Shown: one piece after another, positions 25,368 to 64,000 of the stretch
How positions within the stretch are numbered: the stretch's first letter is position 1
Layout: each line of letters begins with the position of its first letter
NCBI RefSeq assembly: GCF_010389155.1
Contig: NC_057765.1
Location: 6,448,001-6,512,000 of the forward strand
Direction: 5' to 3'
Length of the DNA stretch: 64,000 nt
From: Erigeron canadensis
Lineage: Eukaryota; Streptophyta; Magnoliopsida; Asterales; Asteraceae
The notes under the pieces: model-generated
The model's database searches: none
What the model was told of the DNA's origin: nothing
The model's input: the letters and a program-made list of their open reading frames with translations, nothing else
Made by a program: the position numbers and the translations under genes

Positions 25368-26690
25368 TTTATATATATAAAAGGTGAAGGGAGCGACTGA
25401 ACGTACGAGCAGCGGTGGAAAATGATCGTGGAATCACGCGCCACGCGCCCATTCGAAGACTGTTTCATATCATCGCCGACTTTGATTAAAAGAGGGTCAG
25501 GTCTCTATACACTGTGAAAGTGAATCGGATCAAACCGGATTGAACTGGCTAAACCGTAACCAAATGCCGGTGAAGCAATATTAATATTATCTATTTTCCA
25601 CTATATAAATGTCGATATTTTACTTCTTAAAAATATGTCCAAACAGTTTTAAACTTTATAATCACTTTTTCATCATTATTATCTTTATATATCCATTAGT
25701 TAAAGTTAATGTAAGTATTTTGTATTAATGTGTATGTATATTGTACTTCTAAATTTTATATATAATATATGAGGATAACTTATATGATGTTAACATCATT
25801 TAATTAGATGATATTCTCCTCACAAACACCATAAAATTCATGGAGGGCTATTTAACATGTGTGAAATTGATGTGAGTGTATCACCATAATGTTAATATCA
25901 TATAACATTTTCCCATAATATATATACAAATCCAATTCAACTACGGTCCAACCGATCCGACCAGTAAAATATTGTGAGACCGGTTCAGTGTCCGGTCCGG
26001 TTTTCAAAACATTGCTATGCAGAACGCTGAAGTCTGAACCATCCAGAATCCCACACTACTGTTTGGGCTAAATTATCTGGGCTTAAATAGGCTCTTCTAA
26101 AGTCCAGCATAATGTCTACTTTTGGCCCAGTAAGTCCAGCATAATATGTATTTTGACAAAAACATAGTATTACAGACCTATAGAATCTATAATTATAATT
26201 AAAGTATTATTACATGTTTAGAAGCTTATATCTTAATCCCAAATTATCTAGCATCTAAATTATCAAAACATAGTGTACATTTTTAAAACAAATTATACTC
26301 CGTAACACATTATTAACAGGTTGTGTTCCATTTTTCAAATCAACATTTCTACATTGTTTCTAGTTACGTGAAGTGTTTTTCCTTATTGAATATAAATCGA
26401 GAAATTATGTTTACGACACACATAGGGATGAGCAAAATTAGTCCGGTACCACCGATGGTGTAGGTTTTGGTTTTAGATATTTGACAAAAATGGTCTATTA
26501 CCAACCAGTTTGATACTGAGAAAACCTAATTTTGGTACCGAAAAGGTAGCAAAGTTTATTATTTTAATGTAGATTTTGGAAGTTATGGAATAAGTGATGT
26601 GCATTCTTAGTATGGTGAAGTCATCCGTTTATGTTTTATATTATTTGTACAAACTACACCTCTTATAAATGTACTGTATTAATAATAAGT
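25368..26690. other. Intergenic with degraded repeats
   Basis: It contains a MULE-type MITE (separate entry), CCGGTT/AAAACCGG-type repeat debris at 25500-26010, and a TAGGGATGAGCAAA hAT-like end near 26425 without a matching partner. There is no gene. Confidence 0.45.
25771..25914. mobile_element. Mutator-like MITE, 144 bp, 9-bp target duplication
   Basis: The termini GAGGATAACTTATATGATG and CATATAACATTTTCCC are inverted repeats; over 26 bases they agree at about 20. The flanks carry the 9-bp direct repeat ATAATATAT (25762-25770 and 25915-25923). The duplication is AT-only, so chance cannot be dismissed. Confidence 0.6.
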
Positions 26691-26695
26691 GAAAA

Positions 26696-27639
26696 ATGTT
26701 TGATAGATGGGAATATGGTGCTGAAGCTTTGTATAGACAAAAACATGCGGATGTAGAGGTGCAACTCAGGGAGAAGAGGGCTAAGTTTGAGGCTGAAAAG
26801 GAAAAATGGTTGAAGTATATGGAGGATAGGAAGAGGCCACAGAGGATTGTAGATGCTGAGGCCTTCAAAGCTGACATGGGTCTTAAGACCAATCCGAAAG
26901 TATTAAGAGAAGGTGTTGGTGTCCCAACAAGATTTGAAGGGGTCAAACCCACCACTCTGGGTGCTTCTGAGTGGTTTGAAGTTAACATGCTGGTGAAGGA
27001 CAAAAAGGCTGCCAGCTATGCTCAACTCTAAAAGACGCTGAAAGATTATTTTGAGAAGGCCAGGGATACGAGACAAAGTTTAAGGCAAACCTGCCGATGC
27101 TGAGGCAAGTTTTTGGCACTCCAACAGCTATAACCTCAACAGCAAGCAAAAGGGAACAAAGAAAAAGAAAAACATATTTACCCTTGTCTGTTGACCTTCC
27201 TCTTATTACTAGTTATGCTCTGCTGAACACCAGACTTCCTCCAAGAAGCTTTTTTGAAGAGGGGAGAGTACTGGAGAATCCTGCTGGCATATTCTTCACA
27301 AACTTCCAGAACAATCAGCTATTCTCCCGCTTGGCAGAAATTGAAAAAGTTCATCATTAGCATAAGAAGAAGGTGTGCTGAAACATCCAGTAACAGATGG
27401 TTCATCAGTAAGTTGGATGAAGAATTGATCAAGCCACACTGAAGAGATGATCCAGCAGTCAAGATGGCCAAACAAGAACAAGTCTGGGAGTTTGAAGCAG
27501 CAAATCTGTAGATGTCTTACTTTGTAATAGTATCAGCTTGTAATGTTCTTTGATGATATAAAAGACATCTTTCTACCATACTTTGTTCTTTTCTAAGTCT
27601 TATCTACTCAGCAAGTCTTCTCAGCGAATAGGGGGAGAT
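26696..27639 (+). pseudogene. 3' end of a related copia element: tail of the post-pol ORF plus PPT
   Basis: The first 111 codons (26696-27031) are rich in charged helix (ALYRQKHADVEVQLREK, FEAEKEKWLKYMEDRK). They contain VKPTTLGASEWFEV and LVKDKKAASYAQL, matching the tail of the post-pol ORF of the large minus-strand element (VKPTTLGPTEWFEI, LIKDKKTSQYDPLL). Stops and frameshifts follow, with further fragments to about 27500. The segment ends in TCAGCGAATAGGGGGAGAT, nearly the same polypurine tract as in the large element, directly before an LTR. Confidence 0.75.
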
Positions 27640-28296
27640 TGTTGATGAGTCAAGGATTCGCTGACCAAACTTGGTCGCTGACGTGTGTCGTCAGCAAGTC
27701 ATCAGCGAGTCGAGTGACTCTCTTCAGCGGATTGTATGGTGCCCAAATTGTATGTCAAGGTAGGAAGATTTCAAACAGGATGAAGACAAAAGTTACATGG
27801 TGGTTCTTCCAACTGTAATTTGCCTTGTATGGCAAAGGTACAGTTGGGACCAAAAGCAAAGGTTTTCTCTTTCATACCCGTTTTGGTAGAGAAGACAAAG
27901 GCTCCTGAATTCAAGTACAAAGAGCCAATGGGACGTCAACAACCACCATCAAGTCTTTATCAAAGGAAGGTTGGGTTGCCCTAATTCTCCTCTATAAAAA
28001 GCAACACAGCCGCACCATTTACAGTGTGTTTGTCACCATAAAAAGTGTGTGTCACTTTAATTGTAATTGTTCAAGTTTTTAGCGTGTCTAGACTTAGCAA
28101 TTACTTTGTTCATTTGTATTCTTGTAATTCAAGTTGTAATATCAACCATGTGTTCATCGTTTAATCAATCATACATATGATTAGATTTGCCTAGATTCCT
28201 TGCATTTGAACTTGTTATTGTTCTTGTTATTTACTTTCTGTTCTTTACTTTTTGCTTAGTTAATTATAATACAAGTTGTGCATTCGTGGACTGTCA
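27640..28296 (+). mobile_element. LTR of the Sirevirus-like family (657 bp), plus orientation
   Basis: It begins TGTTGATGAGTCAAGGATTCG right after the purine tract and ends GTGCATTCGTGGACTGTCA. A TATA-like CTATAAAAAG lies near 27992. Start, end and length match the 668-bp LTR at 51432-52099 (read on the minus strand). A primer binding site follows at 28299. Confidence 0.85.
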
Positions 28297-28298
28297 AG

Positions 28299-28311
28299 TG
28301 GTATCAAAGCC
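28299..28311 (+). other. Primer binding site after the LTR
   Basis: TGGTATCAAAGCC begins two bases after the LTR end. The following sequence is not gag but a piece of the post-pol ORF, so the internal region is deleted or rearranged. Confidence 0.8.
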
Positions 28312-28852
28312 AGATGAAACCTTAGCCCTGGTCACTGAAGCAATCAATGGCGCTATGAATAAAATTTATGAGGACTCTGTTGAAGGGGTGTTAAATGAAG
28401 ATACCGCTGAAGCCACCAAAACTAAAAATGATGATGATATGGCAATCATGGCTGTCAGCGAGTAAAATGAAGGTGAAACTCCCCCTGCTGGTGTTGAGGG
28501 GGAGACAAAAGGAGAAAAGTAAGGTGGTGAAACTCCCCCTGCTGGCGTTGAGGGGGAGATTAAAGAAGTTGATGCTGAGGGGGAGCAACAATTGATTGTT
28601 GCAAATGCTCCCCAATTTGAAAACTTTGAGGATATTGGTGAGGAGTTCGATCCCAAAGTTCTTAGAGCTGAAGGGGAGGCCAGGTTTGCTGAAGAAATGG
28701 CCACTGACAGATCCAAGGAAGTTCTCTCAATCTTTCATCCACGCAGGGGGAGCAGAGAAAAAGCAGTAAAAAGCAAAAGAAGTAGATTGATAACAAAGAC
28801 AAAGACGAAGACATTTATTTTAACGTCTAGAAGCTATTGCCAAGGGGGAGTC
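28312..28852 (+). pseudogene. Fragment of the post-pol ORF joined directly to a PBS
   Basis: Several short frames are acidic and Glu/Ala-rich (ANAPQFENFEDIGEEF, VLRAEGEARFAEEM, LSIFHPRRGSREKA). They resemble the middle of the extra ORF at 52-54 kb, which has VEGEE-type repeats and the same AGGGGGAG purine motifs. It is interrupted by stops at 28463-28465 and 28521. It ends with CCAAGGGGGAG directly before another LTR-like segment. Confidence 0.6.
28472..28560 (+). repeat. 54-bp tandem repeat with CTCCCCCT/AGGGGGAG hairpins
   Basis: GGTGAAACTCCCCCTGCTGG recurs 54 bp later (28472 and 28526). Each copy forms an 8-bp perfect inverted repeat CTCCCCCT ... AGGGGGAG with a 10-nt loop. Confidence 0.85.
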
Positions 28853-34341: not shown

Positions 34342-35843
34342 ATGGCAACAATGAATATAGCACCTGTCTCTGGAGCATCAACTCCACAAAGGTACACACT
34401 ATTTCACATTTTTGCTATTTGCCTCATCTTTACTATTAAATAAATTCTTAAATCTATTGCATACAATGTTGTTTTCTAAGTTAGGATTAAAGATCTTATA
34501 AGCAAATATATATGTTTTGATTGCTAGATTATTAGCGAATATAACGAGTGGGGCTGAAAGTATTAGAGCGTGTTCGCGAGAATTGTGCATCGAGAGTGGG
34601 AAAAATGATGTTCTAGCTAGTAGTAAATCCTATGTAGCACAACAATTGCATTTCAAACAGATCAACAAAATCCAAAGATTAAGATCTACTCTTGTTCGTG
34701 TCCATAACCACCAATCTATTAGAAATTCCTTGGGGAACGACGAACATGGAGCTACCACGAGGTATACAATGTTCTATGGTTCCCAATTGTTTTTTTCTGT
34801 TCTTACAAACAATAACCGAGATTTGAAAATTCATTACATACAATGCACATGATTGAAAGCTCGATACACACTATGACAATTCATGTAAAATTTTTTACAT
34901 TCTGAATTACTAAGCTAATTTAGGCTAAACTTGATATTTCTTCTCTGTATCCTTAAATGGTAGATTATTATGATTTTGCATACTCATTATCATTCTATTA
35001 TAATTTTAAATTGGACTAAACATCTTCTAACAATTAATTTCTATGTTTGGGATATATAGACTAGCAGGTAAAGTAGCAATCATAACTGGAGCAGCTCAAG
35101 GAATTGGAGAATGTACTGCAAGACTTTTTGCTAAACACGGAGCCAAGATTGTAATCGTTGACATCCAGGACGATTTGGGTCAATCTGTTTGTGAAGACAT
35201 TGGTCTTGAAAGCGCATCTTACATCCACTGCGATGTAACTAAAGAAGAGGATATAGAAAAGGCAGTAAAGTTCACCATAGAAAAGTATGGTAAATTAGAT
35301 ATAATGATCAACAATGCCGCGGTTTTAGGTGAAGCAAAGCAAAGTATTCTTGAAAACAGCAAAGCTGACTTTGACCATGTTATAAGTGTCAACTTAGCAG
35401 GCGTTTTTCTAGGAACAAAACACGCAGCTCGTGCCATGATCCCAGCTCATAGTGGTAGCATTATATCAGTTGGAAGTGTATCTTCTGCAATTGGCGGTGT
35501 TTCCCCTCATGCATATACTAGTTCAAAACACGCAATAATTGGACTGACAAGAAATGTTGCTGCAGAACTTGGCAAACATGGAATTCGGGTCAATTGTGTA
35601 TCCCCTTACCTTATTCCACCATCAGTCCCAGCTGAAATAACCGATACGTATCCAGATATATTTAAAAATATATATTCAAACATTAAGGGAGTGACTCTTC
35701 AAGGAGAAGATGTGGCTCAAGCTGCTCTGTACCTAGCAAGTGATGACTCCAAGTATATAAGTGGCCATAACCTTGCAGTTGATGGAGGGTTTACCACAAT
35801 AAATCCTGGATTCGGCTTATATGCGCCATCTAAATCTTCTTAA
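34342..35843 (+). CDS. Short-chain dehydrogenase/reductase (SDR110C-type, secoisolariciresinol dehydrogenase-like)
   Basis: Exon 1 (34342-34391) encodes MATMNIAPVSGASTPQ and joins in phase to exon 2 (35060-35843), giving 277 residues, the usual size for this family. The classical SDR motifs are complete: TGAAQGIG (residues 26-33), Asp51 at the end of beta-2 favouring NAD(H), NNAA at 101-104, Asn128, and catalytic Ser156, Tyr169 and Lys173 (YTSSK). These enzymes oxidise or reduce alcohols of lignans, terpenoids and ABA precursors; the substrate cannot be read from sequence. The 668-bp intron contains a 234-bp stretch (34528-34761) with good splice sites that would insert 78 codons in frame. 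I treat it as intron. No lesion is seen in the coding part. Confidence 0.87.
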
Positions 35844-38742: not shown

Positions 38743-39387
38743 TGTTGGATCAGGGATTCGCTGAGGGACTCAGCGAGCTCTCAGCGAGCATATGCATCTG
38801 CAAGCATGTTCTACCTTCAAAGTCTAAAGGATATGTTCAATGACTCATCGTCCAGTATTTGTAAGTCAAATATGAGCGGGAATTTGAAGAATAGAAGAAT
38901 GGTCCCAAGGACACGTGTTGAAAGATTAAGATGAAGCCATGTGACCTTGTACTACTTTTGTGCAATGGAGTTTCTCTTTCATACCATTTTTGGAAACAAA
39001 CAAGATGAAGGAAAGAGACCTCTGCAGATCTGAATGATCCACCAATAGATAGTTGACAACCTTCATGTGTCAACATCTACTAGGGTAGTCATGTGATTCC
39101 TTATCTGCCGATAAAAAGGATCACTTGACCTAGCCACCATTCTGTTGGGGTGTTCCACAGTTTTTACTTTATTCTCTTTAGTTATTTGTTAAGTTTTTGT
39201 GTGTTCAAAAACTTAACATATTTTTCTGTTTATTGTTGTTGTTAAACAACCATCCATGTTTTCATCGTTTAGTTTGAAATACATATAACTAAACAAAGTT
39301 CTTTACTTCTCGTCTCTATTCTTGTTACTTCATATTTATCTTACAAGTTAGTTAATCAAACACAAGTAGTGCATTCGTGAACCTTCA
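38743..39387 (+). mobile_element. Solo LTR of the Sirevirus-like family
   Basis: It starts TGTTGGATCAGGGATTCGC and ends GTGCATTCGTGAACCTTCA. It is 645 bp and similar along its length to the LTR at 51432-52099. No internal retrotransposon sequence adjoins it. The flanks GACTC (38738-38742) and TACTC (39388-39392) match at 4 of 5 bases, as expected for an old 5-bp duplication left after LTR-LTR recombination. Confidence 0.82.
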
Positions 39388-49139: not shown

Positions 49140-49791
49140 TTTATCAATTACTTGGTAAGTCCCAAGTTTGAAGGATATGTAATTAACAACTAATGTAAAT
49201 TGCTCTAAGAACAAATAACAAAGTAAATAAGTTTAATCATATGTATTATTGATTAAACAGTGAATAGATGGCCGATTTAAAGAAGAAGGAAAAGAGAAAA
49301 CATTGTTAAGTTTTTGATACATTAAAAACTTAACAATTATACAATGATGTAAAACACACACTAAGTGTAGATTGTGGAACACACCAACAAGGGTGCGACT
49401 AGGTTAAGTGATGACTTATATAGGGTAAGAGAACGCATCACATCACAACCCAATAGATGTTGACACATGAAAGGTTGTCAACCATCCATTGGTGTGTAAG
49501 ACTGATCTGCAGGACTCTCTATCTTCATCTTGTTTGTTTCCAAATCGGGTATGAAAAAAGAGAAACACCTTAGTACCATTTTGGTACAAGGTCACATGTC
49601 TTCATACTGCTTTATCAACACGTGTCATTGGGGACTAGTCTTCTTATCTTCATTTTCCCGCCTATATTTGACTTAAAAATCTTGGTGTTGAGTCATTGAA
49701 CTTATCCTTAACTCGAAAATAATTGATGGTCGCTGAGCAGTCGCTCACAAAATTCAGCGCTGAGTCTCCTAAGCGAATCCATGACTCAACA
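49140..49791 (-). mobile_element. Diverged LTR of the Sirevirus-like family
   Basis: On the minus strand it starts TGTTGAGTCATGGATTCGC at 49791. It shares the order of landmarks with the 51-kb LTR (GTGTCAACATCTATTGGG, GGTGTGTTCCAC and GTTAAGTTTTTAATG in minus reading). The distal end is diverged and lacks the CACAAGTAGTGCATTCGTG terminus, so the left boundary is approximate. No internal sequence adjoins it. Confidence 0.65.
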
Positions 49792-51431: not shown

Positions 51432-52099
51432 TGATGGTCCACGAATGCACTACTTGTGTTTGATTTACTAACTTAAAATGTAAATATGAAATAACAAGAA
51501 TAGAGACGAGAAGTAAAGAAATTAGTTTAGTTATATGTATTTCAAACTAAACGATGAAATCATGGATGGTTGTGTTACAACAATAGTAAACAAAAAGGAA
51601 AAGAGTTGTTAAGTTTTTGAACACACAAAAACTTAACAAATAAGCAAAGAGAATAAAGTAAAGAATATGGAACACACCAACAAAACTCGTGGCTAGGTCA
51701 AGTGATTCCTTTTATAGGCAGATAAGGAATCACATGACAACCCTAGTAGATGTTGACACATGAAGGTTGTCAACTTTTTATTGGTAGATCATTCAGATCT
51801 GCAGAGGTCTCTTTCCTTCATCTTGTTTGTTTCCAAAAATGGTATGAAAGAGAGACTCCATTGCACAGACATAGTACAAGATCACATGGCTTCATCTTGA
51901 TCTTGCAACACGTGTCCTTGGGACCATCCTTCTTATCTTCAATTTCCCGCTCATATTTGACTTACAAATACTGGACGGTGAGTCATCGAACATATCCTTT
52001 AGACTTGAAGATAGATCGTGCTTGCAGATGCAGGCGCTCGTTGAGAGCTCGCTGAATGAGTCACTCGCTGAGTATCTTCAGCGAATCCATAACTCAACA
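51432..52099 (-). mobile_element. 3' LTR (668 bp) of the large element
   Basis: In minus reading it starts TGTTGAGTTATGGATTCGC and ends GTGCATTCGTGGACCATCA. A TATAAAAGG box lies near 51710. It is preceded by the polypurine tract and matches the visible 5' LTR (63885-64000). Confidence 0.9.
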
Positions 52100-52113
52100 A
52101 TCTCCCCCTATTC
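52100..52113 (-). other. Polypurine tract
   Basis: GAATAGGGGGAGAT (minus strand) directly precedes the 3' LTR. Reverse transcription uses such a tract to prime plus-strand DNA. Confidence 0.85.
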
Positions 52114-52243
52114 GCTGAGGAGACTTAGCTGAGTAGAAGATTTGCACTAATAATTATTTGACAAGAGATCTTTGGTATAATGCTGATTTTATATATATGA
52201 CAAACATGTTACAAGATATCAACATTACAATTTTACAAGCAAT

Positions 52244-54377
52244 CTATTCCCACATGCATTCTTCCTTAGCCTTGATTAATTCAGCTTCATTTTGTCTTTC
52301 TGGCTTCAGCAGTTCTCTATCAATCAACTTCACAAACTCTTGATTGTTAGAGGACTTGATGCAATATTTCCTAATCTTTACCAGAAATGCCGAAGAAGCA
52401 ATGCTAATTTCATTTGTTCGAAAAAATAGTTCATGACCATGAACATTACAGAAACATAAACCTCCCAGATTTTCATCATACTCTCCATCAACGAAAAGAG
52501 TTCTTAATGGCATTTTCAAGTTGAGAAGTGGCTCTTCTTCAATGTTTGCTTTTGGGACAGCTCTGAGAATAGAGGGGAGCTGAGAGACTGCTTGACCAGC
52601 AGCTGTCCTTTTGGTGCCACTTCTTGGTTGCTGTGGAGGAGGAGGAGGATAAGGATGTCTGGCAGAGCTGAGCAGGGAATCTTTCACTTTGTATTTTCGT
52701 TCTTTGCTTCTGATGTCTTTGATTTGCTCTCCAGCCATCTTGAGCAGAGGATCATATTGTGATGTTTTCTTGTCTTTGATCAGCTTGAAGATCTCAAACC
52801 ACTCAGTTGGCCCAAGTGTAGTAGGTTTGACATTCTTTAGATTGTACAACTTGGGCATCCCTCTCCTCTGAATACTTAAGTTCATACCTTGCTGAGTGAG
52901 AGTAGGAGTTACCTTGAGAATTTCTTCTTCTCTTTGTCTGATCTCTCTTGACTTGAGGTAAGCTGCCTGACTCTCCTCTTAAGGTTTTAGCTATCTTAGC
53001 AAAAAATTGCTCCTCATTCCTTTTGAGAGCTGCCAACCCTAACCTACTCGTTTCTTCATCAGCACCTTTTAATTCCTCACTGACAACCTGCTTACTGATG
53101 AACTTAGCTAAAAGTTCTTCTTCTTTCTTTTTGCTTAGTATTTCATGTTGAAGAACAATTTCTTCTGGAGAAAGATCAGTAGAAGCAGTTGTTGATTTTG
53201 GAAAGGCTCCAAACATCAATTTTTCTTGTTGACGAGGTTTGGGTGGCTTGCATTGAGAAACCATGACTGCTTTACCTTTGTCAGCAAATCTCTTTTCAAG
53301 AGCAGCATGGAACTCAGGAGTTGGTTTGAAGGAGGATACATTTATTGGCCTTGCTGGAACAACCTCAGCAGGCTTTGACACAACTTTAGTAAGACCAGCT
53401 GGCACCTCCTCAACTGTCTCCTTAGCAGCTTCTTTATTTCCTTGCTCCCCCTCAACGTCAGCTGCCGGTCCATCAACCTTATCAGCTTCATCATTTTGAC
53501 TTTCTTTTGTTTCCTCCCCCTCAACATTTGCTTCAACTTCAATACTTTGGGAACTAAGGGGAGCATTTTCAACCTGGACTTCCTGAACTTTGTTTGTTGG
53601 GACCTCCTCAACTCTTTTCTCCCCCTTGGAAGCAGCGGAGGTATCAGCAGCTTCCGTTTTAGTTTTAAGGAGGCCTAACATCTCATGCATCATACCTTTC
53701 AGTTCACCAACTTCTTTTTCAAGTTTGGAAGTTCGATCATCAAAAGTGGCAGCAGAAGAAGATTGTGGTTTGAGAGAAGAAATTTCTTGGGTGAGAGTGG
53801 TGAGAAAATCATCTTGGTGCTTGAAAAAAGTGGAGACGGTATGATTTAGTTGATTTAGATGGGCGGTGAAGAGAATGTTTGATTGAGAGAGTTGATGGAG
53901 CGAAGAGACAAGACCAGGAACTTCAGTGGCCAAGTTGGATTTTAGAAACTCATTCTTTAATTTTTCAAGAGATGTTGAGATAGAAGAGTTTGAAGTGCTA
54001 ACCCGTTTCATGCTGGCATCAAGTAAAGTTTGATTTTGACGAAGAAGGCGCTCATGAGTTAGCTCGCTTGCACGATGAGCGTTCTTGATGCCAAATATGT
54101 TGTCTTTAAGTTCAGCTAGCTCATCCTGCAAAGTATCATTCCCAGCGACCAACTCACCAAACTTCGCCCATGCTCCCAGGTTTAGCTCAGCCACTTTGTC
54201 AACCAACCATGCATATAAGTAGCCATGTCTATTTCCTTGACTTTGGCAAACTTGCACCCTTCTTAAGATTTCTTGCAACTGGTATGTTTCGACATAATCC
54301 AAACCAGGCAAGTTGATAGCTGTGAAGGCAGTAGTCGCTTTTTGTGGAGAAGGAACTTTCAAGTTCTTTAGCGACAC
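52244..54377 (-). pseudogene. Second part of the post-pol ORF (coiled-coil, acidic), one frameshift
   Basis: It begins at GTG 54377, in the same frame as the preceding 657-codon ORF and separated from it only by TAA CTA. About 480 meaningful codons contain probable coiled coils (SLEKLKNEFLKSNLATE, SKLEKEVGELKGMMHEM), an acidic Glu/Val-rich stretch with VEGE repeats, and a Lys/Glu helix (LSKKKEEELLAKFISKQ). A frameshift near 52930 moves the reading to a 213-codon frame (52885-52244). That frame contains QREEEILKVTPTLTQQG just before it, then VKPTTLGPTEWFEI, a proline run, and a C-terminal block (CNVHGHELFFRTNEIS). No transmembrane segment or signal peptide is evident. The function is unknown. 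Relatives of its middle and tail are at 26.7-28.9 kb. Confidence 0.75.
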
Positions 54378-54380
54378 TAG

Positions 54381-56354
54381 TTATTTGCTACAAGGAAGGC
54401 CAAAGAAATCAGGATGATGTAGTGGTGGCACTTCCATGATTATTTCATCGTCCAACTCCTCAGCTTCAACATATACTGCTGGCTTCATTTTCACAATTTT
54501 GCACATCATAATTCTTTTTTGAAGCTCAGCATCATCTAATTTGAGTTCAAACTCTCCAAAGTGACCATCAAGCTCAAACTTAGCAGTGGGCTTTGGAGAG
54601 AATCTTGGAGGAGGGGGCATGTCATCAAGAGACTCTAGGACATCGTCAAAATGATTGGGAGAGGAGATAAGCACATATCCCAAGTCTTCAGCCAAAAAAC
54701 CACTAACAACATCTTCCTCACTTTCTTCAGCTGCATCGAGTGTGATTTCAGCATCATCATTTAATGGGTCAAACTCACTGCCAACTTCTTCGTCTGTAAG
54801 ATTACCAAAAATATATGTCTCGGTCCCTGCAAAAGCAGTTTCCAAGACAGAAGTAGATGGAGGGTTAAGGGAACCTGGTGCCTCAACCTCAGTGTGTTGT
54901 ACCACCAAGATATCATCGGCCGTAGAGGGTGTTGACTCTAGTATCACTTGTGATCTGGCTGCTGTCAACGACTCAGAAGGTATTTGAGAAGAAGGGGGAA
55001 TATTTATTTGGGGTGGAGTTGGACTCTGACCTCTAGTGGGTTGGGGTGACCCAATTTCTTCACCAACCTCTCTTACAGAAATTTGAGGTGGCTGCCTGCT
55101 GCTCCCATTTAACTCGTCAACAGCCTGTTGGGAGGCTGCTGATGGGGTGGCTTGGGTACTAGTGTCCTTGGGAGTAGAGAACATCCTAACCTTTGGTTTG
55201 CCCTTTGAATTACTTCGCTTTCGTTTTGGGACGACAGCGGAGGGTGAAGATTGAATATCTTGAGTTGGGGATGCTACCTTAGATTTTCTTTTGGCTTGTT
55301 TGGAGGCTTTGGAGGTCCCTGGGGGGTTTTCCAGCAAACCAGCCTCCGAAGGCATTTCGGCATCCACAACGACCGTATCAGCCACTTCATCAGAAAGAAG
55401 TGCTACCTCCCAGTCGCTGTCTTTGGGGTATAGAGAAGAGTTTAAAGAAAATAATACCTCTTTCATGTGTGAGGTGAGCCTTGCAATAAGATGTTCAGCT
55501 GGCTGCTTGTATATGTTGTTCCCAACCCTTGCAATTGGGATTGTTGAAGCGTCTGGCAGCGAATAAGCATCACCAAGTGCTTCCTTGAAAATCACAGAAA
55601 ATAATCTAACAAAAGGCACTGTATGTGACCTATTGTTCATGGAAATCTTGTTCTTCATGTCATTGAAGATCAACAGCCCAAAATCAACAAACCTCCCTTC
55701 TGCAAGAGCATGAATCATAGGCATAGAAGTAGTGGATGCCTGATTGTAAGACCCGGAATTTCCACCCATACACTGAATTACATGCGTAAAAAGAACTCTC
55801 CAGATCCCTGGAAGATTTTGCTTAAGAGGATTGCTGGGGATCGTGGATGGAGGGTTCTTTAGATTATATTTAAACCTAATTGACGGCAACCATGCTTTCC
55901 ATTCACTTTCAGTAGCAGGCTCCACAAAGTTATTTTCACTGGTTTCTTGAGGAAACCCAAAAGTTTGGCGAAGGGACGCCAGAGTGATGGTGATGGTTTT
56001 CGTCCATTCCCTAACTGTACCACTGATGGACTTAGTTTCATCATTATAATTACAAGTCCACCAGAATTCTCTAAGAAGATGCATAAAGATCTTCTCAGGA
56101 TCAGCCATAATACATCGACTGGCGGGGGATGCATGGATGAAATCCAGCATTGGCTTATATCCTTTTGTACCTTTTGGTACGTCAGACGAGCCGAGATGAT
56201 TGTTAGGTTTAACAACCATCTCTGATGCAATAAAAGAGATTTTAGAAGATTTAATGATATTAGGAGAGGGAGAATAAGTAGAAGAATTCAAGTACGATTT
56301 TGGAGTTTGTTGAGTGGCGGCGGAAGCGGATGGAGTTTCAGATGAAGATGCCAT
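54381..56354 (-). CDS. First part of the post-pol ORF of the large copia element (657 aa, unknown function)
   Basis: An uninterrupted 657-codon frame starts MASSSETPSASAATQQTPKS. Residues about 60-330 look like a folded domain (CIMADPEKIFMHLLREFWW, SGTVREWTKTITITLASLR, GIWRVLFTHVIQCMGG, FGLLIFNDMKNKI, PAEHLIARLTSHMKEVLFSL). The second half is Ser/Pro/Glu-rich and probably disordered, ending FFGLPCSK. It lies after pol and before the PPT, where Sireviruses carry their extra ORF. I see no transmembrane segment, so the label envelope-like is not supported by sequence. It sits about 155 bases downstream of a TATA-like box. I do not recognise its fold and assign no function. Confidence 0.75.
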   Translation of the reverse strand: MASSSETPSASAATQQTPKSYLNSSTYSPSPNIIKSSKISFIASEMVVKPNNHLGSSDVPKGTKGYKPMLDFIHASPASRCIMADPEKIFMHLLREFWWTCNYNDETKSISGTVREWTKTITITLASLRQTFGFPQETSENNFVEPATESEWKAWLPSIRFKYNLKNPPSTIPSNPLKQNLPGIWRVLFTHVIQCMGGNSGSYNQASTTSMPMIHALAEGRFVDFGLLIFNDMKNKISMNNRSHTVPFVRLFSVIFKEALGDAYSLPDASTIPIARVGNNIYKQPAEHLIARLTSHMKEVLFSLNSSLYPKDSDWEVALLSDEVADTVVVDAEMPSEAGLLENPPGTSKASKQAKRKSKVASPTQDIQSSPSAVVPKRKRSNSKGKPKVRMFSTPKDTSTQATPSAASQQAVDELNGSSRQPPQISVREVGEEIGSPQPTRGQSPTPPQINIPPSSQIPSESLTAARSQVILESTPSTADDILVVQHTEVEAPGSLNPPSTSVLETAFAGTETYIFGNLTDEEVGSEFDPLNDDAEITLDAAEESEEDVVSGFLAEDLGYVLISSPNHFDDVLESLDDMPPPPRFSPKPTAKFELDGHFGEFELKLDDAELQKRIMMCKIVKMKPAVYVEAEELDDEIIMEVPPLHHPDFFGLPCSK

Positions 56355-56510: not shown

Positions 56511-56545
56511 TATATATAGGGTATGGTGAAGGAATATGATTGGTC
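56511..56545 (-). promoter_or_regulatory. CCAAT and TATA motifs upstream of the post-pol ORF
   Basis: On the minus strand GACCAAT (56545-56539) is followed after about 20 bases by CTATATATA (56519-56511) and about 155 bases later by the ATG at 56354. A GA-rich tract (56569-56582) lies just upstream, and the interval before the ATG is CT-rich, as in plant 5' leaders. This could let the extra ORF be transcribed separately. The activity is inferred. Confidence 0.5.
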
Positions 56546-56614
56546 AAATGAAAGGACAAAGAAGTTTTCTCTCTCTCTCTCCTCATTTTCAACATGTACA
56601 GTTGTTTTTAACAA

Positions 56615-57024
56615 CTGTAAAAATATATATATATAAAACTTTGTGAGTAACGTTTAAAAAAAAAATTTACAACTACTTGAGAGTGCACCGTATGCGTCTG
56701 ACAGGGCCAGACCGTCAGAGGCACAGTCACAGTCTCAAGTGGACAGGTGACGTACTCAAGTAAACAAGTGGGTAACCTTTTCTTGTAAAGTATATATCAT
56801 ATGGCTCAAAAGACTGCCACGTTGCCAACATAGTTACATCCGAAATAGTTAGTTTTAGATCTAATCCTATGTTTTATTTAATATGTTAAAATCCAACAAC
56901 TATTATTTTAATAGATCATGCCTCAGCAAACACATTGATAAGGACACGTTTTCTATTAGATGTCAGCGAGCATATGACACACATATGGTCGCTGAGATAC
57001 AATTTTTGGCAAATTGTCCGCCAT
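56615..57024. other. Non-coding interval between pol and the extra ORF
   Basis: No frame or repeat is evident apart from the adjoining 106-bp array and the promoter-like motifs. Confidence 0.4.
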
Positions 57025-57320
57025 CAACGGATTTTATAAGTCTTTACCATTAGCTGTTTGCTGATGGACTAGATGGAAACTTTTGGCTTTCCATTGCCTT
57101 TATTTTGCTTTTTCCCAAAGCAACAGGGATCAACGGATTTTAGAAGTCTTTACCAATAACCGTTTGCTATTGGACTAGATGGAAACTTTTGGCTTTCCAT
57201 TGCCTTTATTTTGCTTTTTCCCAAAGCAACAAGGATTAACGGATTTTAGAAGTCTTTACCAATAACCGTTTGCTATTGGACTAGATGGAAACTTTTGGCT
57301 TTCCATTGCCTTTATTTTGT
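57025..57320 (-). repeat. 106-bp tandem repeat (about 2.8 units) after pol
   Basis: Units begin at 57025, 57131 and 57237 (plus-strand CAACGGATTTTA or TAACGGATTTTA). Each contains ACTAGATGGAAACTTTTGGC and CCCAAAGCAAC; the last is incomplete. Units 2 and 3 are nearly identical, unit 1 more diverged. Confidence 0.92.
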
Positions 57321-57381: not shown

Positions 57382-60300
57382 TTAAGTAGCTGAGTCACCA
57401 TTCAACATTCCCAACCTACTAACAAGATCTTTAAATCTCTTTTCATCTAAGGGTTTTGTGAAAATGTCAGCAAGTTGATCATCAGTGGGAATGAAATAAA
57501 TTTCAACATCCCCTTTCATGACATGGTCACGTATGAAATGATACCTAATGTCTATGTGTTTGGTCTTGGAATGTTGAACGAGATTATGTGTGATAGCAAT
57601 TGCACTTGTATTGTCACACATAATGGGAATCTTAGTATAATCTAAGTCATAGTCAGCGAGTTGGTGTTTCATCCAGAGGACTTGTGCACAACAACTCGCT
57701 GCCGACACATATTCTGCTTCAGCAGTGGAGATGGATACTGTATGCTGTTTCTTACTAGACCAACTAGTTAACCTCTCCCCCCCAACAGTTGACATCCTCC
57801 ACTGGTACTCTTTCGATCTAACATGCAGCCAGCATAGTCAGAATCGGAGTAAGCAACAAGATCAAAATTGGACTCCTTGGGATACCAAAGACCTAAGGTC
57901 ATAGTACCTTTCAGGTATTTGAAGATTCGCTTGACAGCGAGAAGATGAGATTCTCTTGGAGATGCTTGATATCGTGCACATAGGCAAGTGGCAAACATGA
58001 TATCAGGACGACTCGCTGTGAGATACATTAGCGAGCCAATCATCCCACGATAGTGAGTGGGGTTCACATGCTTACCGTCAGGATCAGCATGGAGATTATT
58101 GGGAGGAGACATGGGAGTTGGCTTGGGAGAAATATCAGACATATCAAATTTAGCCAACATGTCTCGAATATACTTTTCTTGATTGATGAAAATACCATCA
58201 GCAAGCTGACGTATTTGCAAACCAAGAAAGAAGGTTAATTCTCCCATCATACTCATTTCAAAGTGAGATGACATAAGGGAGCTAAACTTTTTGCATAGTT
58301 TAGTGCTTGAGGATCCAAAGATAATGTTATCAACATAAATTTGGACATACAGTATATGAGCGCCTTTTTGAAAGATAAAAAGAGTGCTGTCAATAGATCC
58401 TCGCTAAAAGTTGTTAGAGAGGAGAAATTCAGAGAGGGTGTCGTACCAGCTCTAGGAGCTTGTTTAAGACCATATAAAGCCTTATGAAGACAATAGACAT
58501 GATGTGGCTTGGCTGGATCTTCAAAACCAGGTGGCTGTTCGACATAGACTTCTTCATCGAGTTTTTCATTTAGGAATACACTCTTAACATCCATTTGATA
58601 GACTTTGAAGTCTCGATAAGCCGCATGTGCTAAGAATAAGCGTATAGCTTCTAATCTGGCCACTGGAGCAAAGGTTTCATCAAAGTCGACTCCTTCTTCT
58701 TGAAGATAACCTTGTGCAACCAGCCTAGCCTTGTTACGTATAACAACACAGTTTTCGTCCATTTTATTTCTATATACCCATTTGGTACCAATAGGTTCCT
58801 TACCAAGTGGTAAAGGAACCAAAAACCAGACATGTTGTCGTTGAAATTGAGTTAATTCCTCTTGCATGGCAGCAACCCAAGAGGGATCAACCATTGCCTC
58901 ACCAATATTTTTGGGAGTGATCATTGACAAGAAGTTTACATAAAGACATGTGTTTCTTGTCGCTGATCGAGTGACCATACCCTGATGAAGATCACCAATG
59001 ACTTGGTGAGCGGGATGACTCGCTGTCCACCTAAGTGCAGGAACACTTGAAGAACCTAGTTGAATATCAGCGGAAGATTGAGTGATGGGGACAGCAGGGA
59101 GAGGATTGTCTGATGAGAAGTCGATGGTGACAATGGGTTCAGCGACAGGATGATCAGTTGAGTCATTTGACTGAGTTGAGTTATCATTGATGTTGGAGTC
59201 ATCAACAGACTCCATATCCTCAGCATTTGCTGAGGTATCATGAAACTCATCCTCAGCGAGATCATCAGCATGAACATCCTTAGTCAACGATCTATTGTTG
59301 GCTGAGGCGGCCTGGATGTATCCTGATGTATCCTGAGATCATCAAAATAGGCTCAACTGGCTCAATAGAGTAAATATGAGCAACAACTTGTTCCTTATCA
59401 GTACTCACTGATGTGTCCTGAGATGTCTGCTGATGACATTCAGGTAAGGTACAAGGTGCACCAGAAAATGAGTCAGCTTCCTCATTGGAGGGATTAGTGA
59501 ACTCACTAAATACTTCTTCATAAGAAGAGGATTGTATGTCTTTTAGAGCAGATGAACTTTCATCAAAAGTGACATGAATGGATTCATCTACTTTTTGAAG
59601 GCGAACATTAAATACTCTAAATGCCTTGCTTATAGATGAGTATCCTACAAAATAACCATCATCAGTTTTGGGATCAAACTTTCCTAGGTGATCCCTATTA
59701 TTCAAAATGAATACAGGGCATCCAAACACATGAAAGTATTTAATTTGAGGTTTCTTACCTCTTAATACTTCATATGCTGTCTTATCATGTCTCTTGACAA
59801 TTAGACAGCGATTCTGGGTGTGACAAGCTGTGTTAACAGCCTCAGCCCAAAATTTGTTTGGAAGGGAGGACTCACTGAGCATTTTTCTCGCTGCCTCGAT
59901 AAGTGTTCTATTTCTTCTTTCAGCGACACCATTTTGCTCAGGAGTTCTAACAGACGAGAAATTTTGTGAGATCCCTTGATCGTCACAAAAGGATTTAAGA
60001 GTGTGGTTTCTGAACTCAGTTCCATGATCGCTTCTGAGTTCTTTAACCCTTATGCCATTGAGATTTTCCATTTTCTTAATAAAATTTATGATCTCATCAG
60101 CAGCATCACTCTTGGAGTGAAGGAAGATAGTCCAAGTGTATCGCGAATATTCATCCATGATAACTAAGGTGTATTTGCTACCTCTTAGACTTTGGACATT
60201 CACAGGACCAAAGAGGTCCATGTGAAGGAGATGAAAGCATCCTTTGACAGAGTTGGCTTGCTTAGTTTTAAAGGTAGCTCTATAGCCTTTACCTTTTTCA

Positions 60301-62285
60301 CAAGCGCTGCATAGTCTGTCTTTTTCAAAGGATAGATGAGGAAGACCACGAACCAAGTTTTTCTTAGCTAGTGAATTTATGGTTTTGAAGTTCACATGCG
60401 ACATACGCTTGTGCCATAACCAATTTAGTTCAGCTGCTGACTTGGCAAAGAAACAAGTCTCGCTATCAGTTTTGATAGGAGTGAAGTCAACGAGATATAC
60501 ATCTCGTTTTCTGGGAGCTACCAATACGACTTCCTTGTTAATATTTACAACAGTCCCTTGATGTTTATCAAGAATGACTTTGTAGTCAACGTCACAAAGT
60601 TGACTAATGCTTATAAGATTGTGTTTTAATCCGTTTACATAGGCAACTTTAGAGAATTTGATTAACCCATTTGAGAGGAGACCATAACCTTCAGTTTGTC
60701 CGGTGGAATTATCACCAAACACTACAGTAGGACCAGCAGCCTCTACGTAGTTATCCAGCAAGGTCTTTGAGCCAGTCATGTGTTTTCAACATCCACTGTC
60801 CAAATACCACACTCCTTTTCCCAGTGAACCCTGCAAGGATAAAACAGAAGGTTTTAGATTGGTCCACTTTCAAATTCGCTGACAAGCATGTCAGCAGGAT
60901 TAAGGATGGGTACATCAAAGGTAGTGGTTGGCTCAGTGGAAAGAGCTTCCTCGAGAGTGGGATGGTTTCCGAAATCAGCAAGCATATGCGTTCTATCATT
61001 CTCATCAGTGGGCATAGTGTTATTCCCATTTTCTTGAAGAACAACAAAGTTGCTGAAAACATTGGGAGCACTAAATTCAACCAGCATCGCTGGTCGTCCC
61101 CAAGAATTGGAGATGACACTCTGAGAATGAGGAATCTCAATACGTTGAGAGGCAACATAGTCAGCTAGGTTAGTTTGATGAGTTCTATATGGGCCAGTGA
61201 CAGAGCCAGTGTCAATGATGATAGATTCATCAAGAGGGCTCTCGCTTATCCTAGTAGATGAGATGGTTTCACTGACAGGATCAGGTAATGGGACACAGGC
61301 TGAAATGGAAGCACTTGTTTGAACAACCACTTCAGGAGCATCTCTTAAGCCACTACAGTCAGTTGCAACATGTCCTCTAATGCCACAAAGATAGCATTTT
61401 CTATTTGAGGAGTTATTTTGTTGATTGCTAAGAATGAATTCCTTAAGTTGAGATGACAAGTCATTGACTTGTTGAGCAAGTTCAACAATTTTAGGGTCTG
61501 AGGAGGTTGAAGCCCTGGTCTTTGCTTTGGACTTAGGATTTGATTTTTGCTTGCGAGAATTCCTTGAGAATGGAGGAGGACCCAAGAGAGATTGTCCAGT
61601 GGGGTCATCTAGACGAGGAGTGGAAGAGGAGGCAACTTGTGATCTTCTTAAAACACTCTAGGCTTGTTTCAGATTTGATTGAGAGGAGGAAGTCCTAGGT
61701 TGATGCACTCTGCTGGGAGTGGTGGACCTAGATTGACGATTTGGAGTAGTAGACCTCCCTTGCCTGTGAGGGAGGTATTCTCCAATAGGAACAGAAGATT
61801 GTACCTGCTGAGAGGACAGTTGTCCTCGGTTAGGAGTGGAGGATCTCACTTGCTGATGTGGCAAGTATCCTCTTTGGGGAGTCACAATCCTTATTTGTTG
61901 CTGAGGAACATTTCCTCGCTGAGGAGTTACACTCCTAACTCCTCATTCGTTGCTGAGGAATGTTTCCTCGCTGAGGAGTTACATTCCTCATTTGTTGCTG
62001 AAGAATGCACCCTCGCTGAGGAGTGGTCGGTCTATTAACTAACTGAGGCATCTTACCTCTTTGAGGAGTTGAGTGTCTCAGAATTGATCGAGGTGGAGAT
62101 GACTGAGTAGCCTGCTAATGGACAACAGGTTTAGCTTGAGATGAGCTTTCATGTTGAAACCTAGCATCTCCAAACTTTACACGTTTCACCATGAGGCGTT
62201 CATGCTGAGATTCCTCAGCATTTGAGACTTTAGAAGGAAAAAGATCAGATAAGATTGACTGGGGTTGCTGTTTAGGATGATCAGC
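57382..62285 (-). pseudogene. Broken copia pol (linker, second CCHC, PR, IN, RT, RNase H)
   Basis: After the gag TAG the frame continues into a TPQRG repeat array, then a basic region and a second zinc knuckle (CYLCGIRGHVATDC). The protease active site DSGC is followed at once by TGA (60786-60788). Integrase is open from 60779 to 59292 with HHCC (HKRMSH ... CSACEKGKG) and the DDE residues (MDLFGP, RSDHGTEF, EQNGVAERR). A frameshift near 59290 leads to RT ([35 protein letters not shown]). A 1-base loss at about 58448 and a TAG at 58404 follow. The RT box reads YVDN instead of YVDD. RNase H (SDSDYAGCMLDRKS, STAEAEYVSAAS, KHIDIRYHFIRD) has a frameshift in a C run near 57780. It is not functional. 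Confidence 0.9.
61667..62075 (-). repeat. 45-bp minisatellite encoding TPQRG-type repeats
   Basis: About nine units of roughly 15 codons begin ACTCCTCAGCGAGGA or variants, with the pattern TPQRG-x2-P-x-QQ-x-R-x2. Examples are TPQRGKMPQ, TPQRGNIPQQRMRS, TPQRGYLPHQQVRSS and TPNRGQLSSQQVQSS. Units drift towards the 3' end (VPIGEYLPHRQGRST, TPNRQSRST). A TAG and a frame change lie in the middle, near 61938. Confidence 0.85.
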
Positions 62286-62288
62286 TCG

Positions 62289-63770
62289 CTAAGGCGTGCT
62301 ATAATCATAAGGCACAGCAACGGTACTTCTTTTGAAAGTCTCAGCCATTTTCAAGGTAAGTTGCTGAGGAGCAATGGATTTGTACCCAGCACTTGAAATG
62401 TCTCCATGAAATGTTTCATTTAGAGAGTATTGAATTTTACCTTCATGTGGCATCATGCCAACAATAGGTAGATAGGAAAACATATTGTTAGAGGATGAAG
62501 ATGAGCTAGCTATTTTAGCTTCAGAGGAATTTGAAGGGTCGCTGGAGAGAGATGAGGAGGATCCAGCGTCCATTTCAGTGTGATAATCAGCCCAATCATG
62601 CTCTTCAGCAACCAGACCTTTGCCTGGTGTTTTGGCTTCTTCAGTTTCAGCCATTTTGGCTTTGAGCTGATAATACTTGTTCCTGTATTCATCAGCAGAT
62701 TTAGATGAGTTAGTTTTTGGAGCAGCAGGAGTTGGGATAGAAACCCTGCACTCCTTTTGATAATGGCCTTTTCTGCCACATTTCCAGCATTCTTCCTGTG
62801 ATTTATCCACAGGAGGCTTATATGGAGCAACCGACTTACGGTTGTTCCATTTTCTGGAGTATTTCTTTCCAGCGATTAAGGCAAATTCCACAAAATCAAT
62901 GAACATTTCTTGTTTCTCTTCAGCATCAAGCTCATCAACAAGAGCTTGAATGGATGCTGGAAGAGTAGAGGTGCCGGCACCATCATTGGGGTAGATGGGC
63001 TCATTAGAGATGAGAGCAAGAGGGTTAGTTAAAGGGTTTGCAGAAGTGCTAGCTGCGGAAGAGGAGCCAGCATATCTCCTAGATTTTGCAGAGGCTCTAA
63101 TATTTTGAGCCAAGGGTTTCTCTTCAAATTGAAGAGTGCCAAACAATTCCTCAAGATCCAGTTCTTGAATCTTTTTAGTGGTACAAAGGATTTGTCTTAA
63201 ATTCTGCCATTTAAGAGGGAGAGAGTCAATGAACTTGTGGCATACCTCAAAATTGTCATTGAGCAACCCTTTGAACCGAGTATATGTGCCCTCGAGACTT
63301 TCATCAGGAAGAGAAAAGAAATTTTCATAGACACGTTTTAGGTCAATTTTCTTGGTTTTAATCAAGTCAGCTGACCCTTCATAAGTGCTCACTAGTCTTT
63401 CCCAGACTTCTTTTGAAGTGGGGAATTTAATGACTAGTTTCATCACCTCAGTGGGAAGAGTGGTGATGATCATATTTTTCAATCTTGAATCAAGATTGAC
63501 GAGCTTTCGCTCTTCTTCAGTCCATTGGACTTCTAGCTTTACCAGATCAGTCACAATTTCAGGAGCATCAGGTGTAGCACCTGGTGTCCTTTGGACATAC
63601 ATGGGTATGTAAGGACCTTCATTTAAGATGGTCATAAGGTATGGTTCTACACCCACTATGTGTAGTAACATTCGTTCCTTCCATGAGCCAAAGTCTTTTG
63701 GCTCAAATTTTGGAGGAATAGAGACGTAACCAAAGTCACGCGTGTTAACCAGAGTGGGTACAGACGACAT
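62289..63770 (-). CDS. Copia gag (UBN2-type) with CCHC zinc knuckle, 493 aa
   Basis: The ATG at 63770 lies about 100 bases after the primer binding site and opens 493 codons. Residues 20-220 form the copia gag/UBN2 domain (FGSWKERMLLHI, EVWERLVSTYEG, GTYTRFKGLL, LPLKWQNLRQIL, ELFGTLQFEE). A single zinc knuckle CWKCGRKGHYQKEC sits at 328-341. A Ser-rich tail follows and the frame ends YSTP-TAG. The same frame stays meaningful beyond the TAG (PKQQPQSILSDLFPSKV) to a second TAG at 62115. The first TAG is therefore either a mutated CAG or a leaky gag stop. The protein would form the nucleocapsid of virus-like particles in the cytoplasm. Confidence 0.88.
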   Translation of the reverse strand: MSSVPTLVNTRDFGYVSIPPKFEPKDFGSWKERMLLHIVGVEPYLMTILNEGPYIPMYVQRTPGATPDAPEIVTDLVKLEVQWTEEERKLVNLDSRLKNMIITTLPTEVMKLVIKFPTSKEVWERLVSTYEGSADLIKTKKIDLKRVYENFFSLPDESLEGTYTRFKGLLNDNFEVCHKFIDSLPLKWQNLRQILCTTKKIQELDLEELFGTLQFEEKPLAQNIRASAKSRRYAGSSSAASTSANPLTNPLALISNEPIYPNDGAGTSTLPASIQALVDELDAEEKQEMFIDFVEFALIAGKKYSRKWNNRKSVAPYKPPVDKSQEECWKCGRKGHYQKECRVSIPTPAAPKTNSSKSADEYRNKYYQLKAKMAETEEAKTPGKGLVAEEHDWADYHTEMDAGSSSSLSSDPSNSSEAKIASSSSSSNNMFSYLPIVGMMPHEGKIQYSLNETFHGDISSAGYKSIAPQQLTLKMAETFKRSTVAVPYDYSTP

Positions 63771-63869
63771 CTTTAAGAGAGAAAAAAAAGGTTTTAAGAT
63801 TTAAACAGTAAAGAAAATAATGTAAACACAAAAGGCAAACAGATCTTGTTTCAATGATTTAGGAACAGT

Positions 63870-63882
63870 GGCTCTGATACCA
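63870..63882 (-). other. Primer binding site of the large element
   Basis: TGGTATCAGAGCC on the minus strand, two bases after the 5' LTR end, matches the initiator tRNA-Met complement. Confidence 0.9.
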
Positions 63883-63884
63883 CT

Positions 63885-64000
63885 TGATGGTCCACGAATG
63901 CACTACTTGTGTTTGATTTACTAACTTATAATGTAAATATGAAATAACAAGAATAGAGACGAGAAGTAAAGAAATTAGTTTAGTTATATGTATTTCAAAC
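63885..64000 (-). mobile_element. 5' LTR, partial (last 116 bp)
   Basis: It is identical to 51432-51547 except for one base (TTATAATG against TTAAAATG). The rest of the LTR lies beyond the window. Confidence 0.92.

What the first reader, a model, noticed from the sequence alone, without database searches (positions are those of the whole stretch)
52244..56354. A 4.1-kb extra coding region downstream of copia pol, with no recognised domain
Seen: after pol and before the PPT the large copia element carries 657 open codons, a single in-frame TAA, then about 710 further codons with one frameshift. Known: Sirevirus-type copia elements can have one extra ORF here, usually called envelope-like, of roughly 2 kb. 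Inferred: this region is about twice that size, has coiled coils and acidic repeats but no visible membrane segment, and is in better shape than the pol beside it. It may be a novel accessory protein, possibly structural or chromatin-interacting.
Basis: partly seen in the sequence, partly recalled or inferred. Interest (0 to 1): 0.75.

Follow-up and report, generated by a model that had tools for sequence, protein, structure and literature searches.

The report
Selected extra gene in a retrotransposon
A plant jumping gene of the Sirevirus kind carries a large extra gene, broken in this copy but shaped by natural selection in the copies compared, that looks like an internal scaffold protein rather than an envelope and that holds repeated copies of a signal normally used to copy the element's DNA.

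Summary
In detail: 657 open codons, an in-frame TAA, then about 712 codons with one frameshift. The host genome (426 Mb; probably Erigeron canadensis or near) gave 70 matches to the first 657 codons, 67-100% identical. In one copy the frame runs 1,341 codons unbroken from the ATG, so the stop and frameshift here look like damage and the gene encodes one protein of about 1,340 residues. dN/dS between this copy and two others is 0.08-0.32 in the correct frame, and 1.8 in a 61-codon wrong-frame stretch. The element is Sirevirus-like by terminal PPT, attachment site, inverted repeat and PBS. "No recognised domain" is partly wrong: residues 83-258 match Pfam PF20167 weakly in 3 of 3 copies scanned. 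There is a coiled coil, no membrane segment, and a CCAAT/TATA block shared by 8 of 8 copies compared. The acidic Glu-Gly-Glu repeats are in-frame copies of the Sirevirus PPT octamer (3, 3 and 2 in three copies; 0.1-0.2 expected). Most likely: a self-assembling accessory scaffold with its own promoter and dual-use internal PPTs. Function is inferred.

The parts
51432..52099 (-). 3' LTR, 668 bp (TG...CA)
   Evidence: 656 of 667 aligned positions identical to the 5' LTR; 5-bp ATATT on both sides
52100..52109 (-). Terminal polypurine tract AGGGGGAG plus AT attachment dinucleotide
   Evidence: matches the Sirevirus junction described in PMC2829016
52067..52129 (-). Inverted repeat around the PPT/LTR junction (arms 52067-52086 and 52110-52129, 85% complementary)
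52247..52978 (-). ORF2b: C-terminal part of the accessory gene, 244 codons, different frame from ORF2a in this copy
   Evidence: dN/dS 0.083 and 0.158; diverged homologue at 26789-27490
52804..54380 (-). ORF2a: coiled-coil and acidic part of the accessory gene, 525 codons; roughly the last 55 lie past the frameshift
53631..54137 (-). Predicted long helices / coiled coil (ORF2a residues 82-250)
   Evidence: heptad periodicity at 191-246; helices in a low-confidence model
53445..53452 (-). Internal PPT octamer AGGGGGAG in frame, read VEGE
53514..53521 (-). Internal PPT octamer AGGGGGAG in frame, read VEGE
53619..53626 (-). Internal PPT octamer AGGGGGAG in frame, read KGE; present in 3 of 3 copies compared
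54381..54383 (-). In-frame TAA between ORF1 and ORF2a; absent from both other copies compared
54384..56354 (-). ORF1: N-terminal 657 codons of the accessory gene
   Evidence: dN/dS 0.157 and 0.235
55581..56108 (-). Weak PF20167 (Transposase_32) match, ORF1 residues 83-258
   Evidence: similar to the L018 N-domain
55215..55226 (-). Basic cluster KRKR (ORF1 377-380), NLS-like by eye
   Evidence: kept in 3 of 3 copies
56511..56519 (-). TATA box CTATATATA about 164 nt upstream of the ATG; candidate internal promoter
   Evidence: CCCTATATATAC in 8 of 8 copies compared
56537..56546 (-). CCAAT-type block TGACCAATCA upstream of the TATA box
   Evidence: invariant in the 8 copies compared
57003..57320 (-). 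Three 106-bp tandem repeats in the linker between pol and the accessory gene
57382..60836 (-). pol (integrase, reverse transcriptase, RNase H), broken into several frames
   Evidence: RNase H by eye
62289..63800 (-). gag frame, 503 codons, with a CCHC-type motif seen by eye
63871..63879 (-). PBS TATCAGAGC, preceded by CA/AGTGG
   Evidence: junction as in PMC2829016
63885..64000 (-). 5' LTR, cut by the window end; continues about 552 bp further in the genome

Best explanation
The 4.1 kb is one accessory gene of a Sirevirus-like Ty1/copia element. It encodes one protein of about 1,340 residues: a weakly PF20167-like N-terminal domain, a basic cluster, a long coiled coil, an acidic hinge and a conserved C-terminal part. 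It is read sense to gag-pol, most likely from its own CCAAT/TATA promoter in the pol-to-gene linker. The protein has no membrane segment, so I infer a self-associating cytoplasmic or nuclear scaffold that acts with the virus-like particle or the incoming DNA, not an envelope. The hinge also holds two to three exact copies of the element's plus-strand priming signal (PPT octamer); I infer these are kept for the DNA and only incidentally read as Glu-Gly-Glu. Shown: single frame in one copy, purifying selection against two copies, shared upstream block, octamer excess. Inferred: promoter activity, self-association, location, role of the protein, priming at the internal octamers. In this copy the gene is broken.
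For: Frame 1,359 codons open in the fetched stretch L031, of which 1,341 from the ATG; 16 of 70 ORF1 matches lie in open frames of 1,000 codons or more, against 677 for ORF1 here. dN/dS against L030 and L031: ORF1 0.157, 0.235; ORF2a 0.320 and 0.216 (two L030 pieces), 0.196 (L031); ORF2b 0.083, 0.158; the 61-codon wrong-frame stretch gives 1.8. PF20167 in 3 of 3 copies at the same place, not in one reversed and one shuffled control. CCCTATATATAC in 8 of 8 upstream regions. Octamers: 3 in ORF2a against 0.12 expected, 0 of 5000 synonymous shuffles; 3 in a 228-codon L030 piece, 0 of 5000; 2 in L031, 14 of 5000. Sirevirus junction features.
Against: No transcript or protein data. PF20167 stays under Pfam's cut-off (17-23 bits against 45). 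Both structure models are of low confidence (pLDDT 39.7 and 44.5). The TATA block is one of three 13-column invariant runs, and 421 of 5000 column shuffles reach that length, so its conservation alone does not prove a promoter. Two of the three octamers here may be one old short duplication. dN/dS rests on two other copies, by a simple method, with synonymous sites near saturation in ORF2a; both were chosen among copies without a stop in ORF1. L030 against L031 gave 0.379 over ORF1+ORF2a and no finite value for the rest. Against the two database relatives the replacement test is weak for ORF2a and ORF2b and strong only for integrase. A passage of PMC1142308 says that env genes of plant elements are far more degenerate than pol, the opposite of strong constraint.
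Confidence: 0.75

Rival explanations
1. It is an envelope-like membrane protein, as such Sirevirus genes are usually called, for cell-to-cell spread.
For: Position, sense orientation and coiled coil fit; passages of PMC3414828 describe Sirevirus ENV-like proteins as sharing transmembrane and coiled-coil domains.
Against: No strongly hydrophobic stretch: highest 19-residue mean 1.13 here, 1.38 in an unbroken copy. No signal-peptide or trained membrane predictor was run.
Confidence: 0.07
2. Two proteins: ORF1 and ORF2 are separate products, or the TAA is a regulated read-through stop, as reported for SIRE1.
For: The TAA is in frame with no other break near it, and two Erigeron gene models begin at the methionine at ORF2a residue 124. 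SIRE1 uses stop suppression (stated in PMC2829016 passages).
Against: L031 runs through without a stop, and L030 has no stop at the end of the ORF1 match, its frame running on to 784 codons; 16 of 70 matches lie in frames of 1,000+ codons. The gene models are predictions.
Confidence: 0.07
3. A captured host gene or a neutral filler open by chance.
For: A database names one relative 'spindle pole body component 110-like'.
Against: 70 matches across the genome; L031 ends in the same PPT and attachment site; no open frame over 231 codons in 1000 shuffles; dN/dS 0.08-0.32.
Confidence: 0.02
4. The octamers are not a signal: they come from expansion of a Glu-Gly-Glu coding repeat kept for the acidic peptide.
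For: Two of three here share a 27-nt unit at 78%; all eight octamers in the three copies lie in one codon phase. In L027 none of the four octamers lies in its 384-codon frame.
Against: Synonymous shuffles that keep the peptide give 0.11-0.21 octamers on average. In another Sirevirus-like element, L018, two of four octamers lie in the corresponding part but are read S-R-G-R and stop-G-E, so the DNA word is there without the peptide. Octamers: 8 in 16.4 kb of L018 and L027, 14 in 177.6 kb of the other 26 loci.
Confidence: 0.4

Closest known systems
SIRE-lineage extra ORF (eORF-3'F / ENV-like), e.g. SIRE1, ToRTL1, MtRetro3, LjRetro3
   Same: Same place and orientation in the same kind of element; coiled coil; 74% of SIRE elements have one, in 19 groups that barely resemble each other (PMC6317226 passages).
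   Different: About 1,340 aa against 381-793 aa in the legume families seen in PMC4093653 (passages); no membrane segment found; a separate 1-kb linker with its own TATA block; PPT octamers inside the gene and not after it.
Athila 3' additional ORF with Transposase_32 (PF20167)
   Same: PF20167 matched part of a 487-aa sense ORF of a sunflower Athila element, with a predicted nuclear signal (PMC11728184 passages); the same family is matched here at the N terminus.
   Different: Athila is Ty3/gypsy; no coiled coil or internal PPT was mentioned in the passages read; the match here is below the cut-off. The two proteins were not compared directly.
Grande gene23 and Retand antisense ORFs
   Same: Accessory gene between pol and 3' LTR; for Grande, own promoter and nuclear protein (PMC7264820).
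   Different: Those are antisense to gag-pol; sequences not compared here.

Membership tests
Sirevirus (SIRE lineage) | Terminal PPT AGGGGGAG followed by AT/TG | tested here: met
   52098-52109 minus strand
Sirevirus (SIRE lineage) | Inverted repeat flanking the PPT/LTR junction | tested here: met
   arms 52067-52086 / 52110-52129; the paper found it in nearly all its Sireviruses and about half of other copia elements, so not exclusive
Sirevirus (SIRE lineage) | 5' LTR/PBS junction CA/A(T or G)TGG then TATCAGAGC | tested here: met
   sequence against PMC2829016 section 12
Sirevirus (SIRE lineage) | Multiple identical PPTs upstream of the 3' LTR | tested here: met
   three further octamers, but inside the accessory gene, 1.3-1.5 kb from the LTR; the paper found most after ENV
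Sirevirus (SIRE lineage) | CGG-CCG repeated motif in LTR and before ENV | tested here: not met
   one CGG-N(0-3)-CCG hit in the part of the element in the window, at 54917 in ORF1. The paper lists a repeated motif for 13 elements, one without this signature, so it does not define all Sireviruses
Sirevirus (SIRE lineage) | C-rich integrase signal near the LTR 3' end | tested here: inconclusive
   no C run seen by eye in the LTR end printed; no comparison with the published motif
Sirevirus (SIRE lineage) | Reverse transcriptase clusters with SIRE references | not tested
   no named reference set was used
ENV-like proteins | Transmembrane segment | tested here: not met
   hydropathy only
ENV-like proteins | Coiled coil | tested here: met
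   by heptad periodicity only
PF20167 Transposase_32 | Score over the curated cut-off of 45 bits | tested here: not met
   20.5, 19.7 and 17.3 bits in three copies, 22.7 for the domain alone

The most novel reading that the evidence does not exclude
The internal polypurine tracts are a second layer of information inside the accessory gene: selection holds the octamer in the coding sequence so that plus-strand DNA synthesis can also start there, and the acidic Glu-Gly-Glu hinge of the protein is its by-product. The element thus combines a 1,340-residue non-envelope scaffold, an own promoter and an embedded central priming site, comparable in logic to the central PPT of lentiviruses (recalled).
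Probability: 0.4. Interest if true: 0.75.

Novelty: new variant of a known kind. Interest (0 to 1): 0.62.

Why it matters
What the extra genes of Sireviruses do has been open since they were called envelope-like; the papers seen here say the function is unproven, and one says no promoter could be conclusively identified (PMC2829016 passages). This family gives a gene under measurable selection, without a membrane segment, with a specific candidate promoter to test, and a case where repeated PPTs, a Sirevirus hallmark without a known role, sit inside a coding region. At least one public gene model appears to take such a protein for a host gene.

Tried and rejected

Selection of data: dN/dS used two other copies (L030, L031) of the 70 matches, and the upstream comparison seven (L034 and L035 belong to the same copies as L030 and L031), all chosen among matches without a stop inside. 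The 70 matches include this copy, and a few are two or more pieces of one copy. L018 and L027 came from 20 places fetched, plus the 8 loci, of 150 listed reverse-transcriptase places.
Full report
What is there. The element lies on the minus strand. Its 3' LTR is 51432-52099; the 5' LTR starts at 63885 and continues beyond the window. Fetching the flank gave 656 of 667 identical LTR positions and the same five bases ATATT on both sides, so this is one complete, fairly young insertion of about 13.1 kb. The terminal PPT, attachment dinucleotide, inverted repeat and 5' LTR/PBS junction agree with those described for Sireviruses (PMC2829016, passages and sections 9 and 12). The CGG-CCG repeated motif is lacking, and the lineage was not tested on a tree with named references.

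The extra region. Two Erigeron canadensis database proteins, P0001 (626 aa) and P0002 (432 aa), the only two of 7,997 scored candidates to pass, align to both ORF2a and ORF2b. One is named 'spindle pole body component 110-like', most likely a retrotransposon gene taken for a host gene.

Copies in the genome. After many busy answers, one search of the window's own genome returned 70 matches to ORF1, 67-100% identical, this copy included; 67 of 3,341 first-look candidates were scored, so the number is a lower bound. 26 of 70 have no stop inside the match, and 16 of 70 lie in open frames of 1,000 codons or more. I fetched the gene from two copies. In L031 one frame runs unbroken through all three pieces (1,359 codons in the stretch fetched, 1,341 from the ATG); L030 has no stop at the end of its ORF1 match but has breaks of its own further on. 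So the gene is most likely one frame in the family, and the stop and frameshift here are damage to this copy. That an unbroken copy exists is stated; none is proposed for use.

Selection. Against L030 and L031, dN/dS is 0.157 and 0.235 for ORF1, 0.320 and 0.216 (two L030 pieces) and 0.196 (L031) for ORF2a, and 0.083 and 0.158 for ORF2b. ORF2a residues 464-525 against L030, most of which lie past the frameshift and so in the wrong frame, give 1.8 over 61 codons, a built-in control. L030 against L031 gave 0.379 over 995 codons, a stretch that includes two stops, and no finite value for the rest. A much older relative inside the window (26789-27073 and 27350-27490) keeps the C-terminal part at pS 0.96 and 0.85 but pN 0.44 and 0.40; that alignment was found by protein similarity, which lowers pN somewhat. 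Against P0001 the coiled-coil part is the most alike (112 of 120 residues, first four blocks from ORF2a residue 124) and the acidic part less so (61 of 82 in the next three). The replacement test in the same call is weak for ORF2 and strong for integrase, so the accessory gene seems less constrained than pol.

Promoter. Between pol and the gene lie 1,027 bp with three 106-bp repeats. CCCTATATATAC is present 155-172 nt upstream of the ATG in 8 of 8 copies compared (this one and seven of the 70), with an invariant TGACCAATCA upstream and a pyrimidine-rich leader (65-71% C+T). The whole linker part aligned is fairly conserved (335 of 619 columns invariant), so the 13-column run is not by itself exceptional (421 of 5000 column shuffles reach it). 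The case rests on the coherence of CCAAT box, TATA box, leader and start context. The authors of PMC2829016 favoured an internal promoter but could not conclusively identify one.

Polypurine tracts in the gene. The Sirevirus octamer AGGGGGAG occurs 12 times in the window, both strands, against 0.65 expected; all 12 lie in this element or in the relative at 27630-28850. Three are in ORF2a, all in one codon phase, read KGE, VEGE, VEGE. Synonymous shuffles, which keep the protein and codon usage, give 0.12 on average, and 0 of 5000 reach 3. L030 has 3 (0 of 5000 in the 228-codon piece tested) and L031 has 2 inside the gene (14 of 5000) plus the terminal one. The KGE site is the same in all three, although ORF2a synonymous sites differ by dS 0.66 to 1.7. 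In L018 two of four octamers lie between the coil and the C-terminal part but in reading contexts S-R-G-R and stop-G-E; in L027 none of four lies in the open frame. I read this as retention of the DNA word, not of the peptide; a duplicated acidic repeat remains a fair rival.

Mechanism. Shown: one gene, under selection in the comparisons made, repeated in the genome, without a hydrophobic membrane-type segment, with octamers in excess. Inferred: an own transcript from the linker; a protein that self-associates by its coiled coil and works inside the cell with the particle or the incoming DNA; octamers used as extra plus-strand primers. I found no stated function for PF20167 proteins in the passages read, so the match does not settle the role.

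Literature seen: PMC2829016 (passages, sections 9 and 12), PMC6317226, PMC11963269, PMC3599292, PMC3414828, PMC4093653, PMC1142308 and PMC9073684 (passages), PMC7264820 (two of three parts), PMC11728184 (abstract, outline and passages). In the listings I saw no paper on PPT octamers inside a Sirevirus extra gene, nor on PF20167 in one; most listed papers were not opened and most subscription papers are not in that library, so this is no proof of absence.

Noticed in passing
window 26680-28850 (+): Remains of a diverged Sirevirus-like relative: C-terminal accessory-gene fragment, PPT, LTR, PBS-like TGGTATCAAAGC, then directly an acidic fragment with five sense and two antisense PPT octamers; in two places an antisense and a sense octamer face each other 10 nt apart, within a 54-bp duplicated unit.
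   Followed up: partly
window 38770-39387 (+) and 49290-49746 (+): LTR copies of the family outside the element, 90.4% and 75.6% identical to the 3' LTR; the first may be a solo LTR.
   Followed up: no
P0001 (Erigeron canadensis database protein): A gene model named 'spindle pole body component 110-like' is a relative of ORF2 and carries a block of about 103 residues about three times over; it is probably a retrotransposon gene annotated as a host gene.
   Followed up: partly
[not shown]
   Followed up: partly
window 56962-57000 and LTR starts: The word TCAGCGA/TCGCTGA recurs at LTR starts and as a 7-bp dyad in the linker, a possible family version of the repeated motif of Sireviruses; it also occurs elsewhere in the element.
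   Followed up: no
window 35031-35843 (+): A 270-codon open frame that reads as a short-chain dehydrogenase/reductase; the name is by eye, no search was run.
   Followed up: no
window 61878-62024: Tandem repeats of about 45-52 bp between gag and the integrase part of pol.
   Followed up: no
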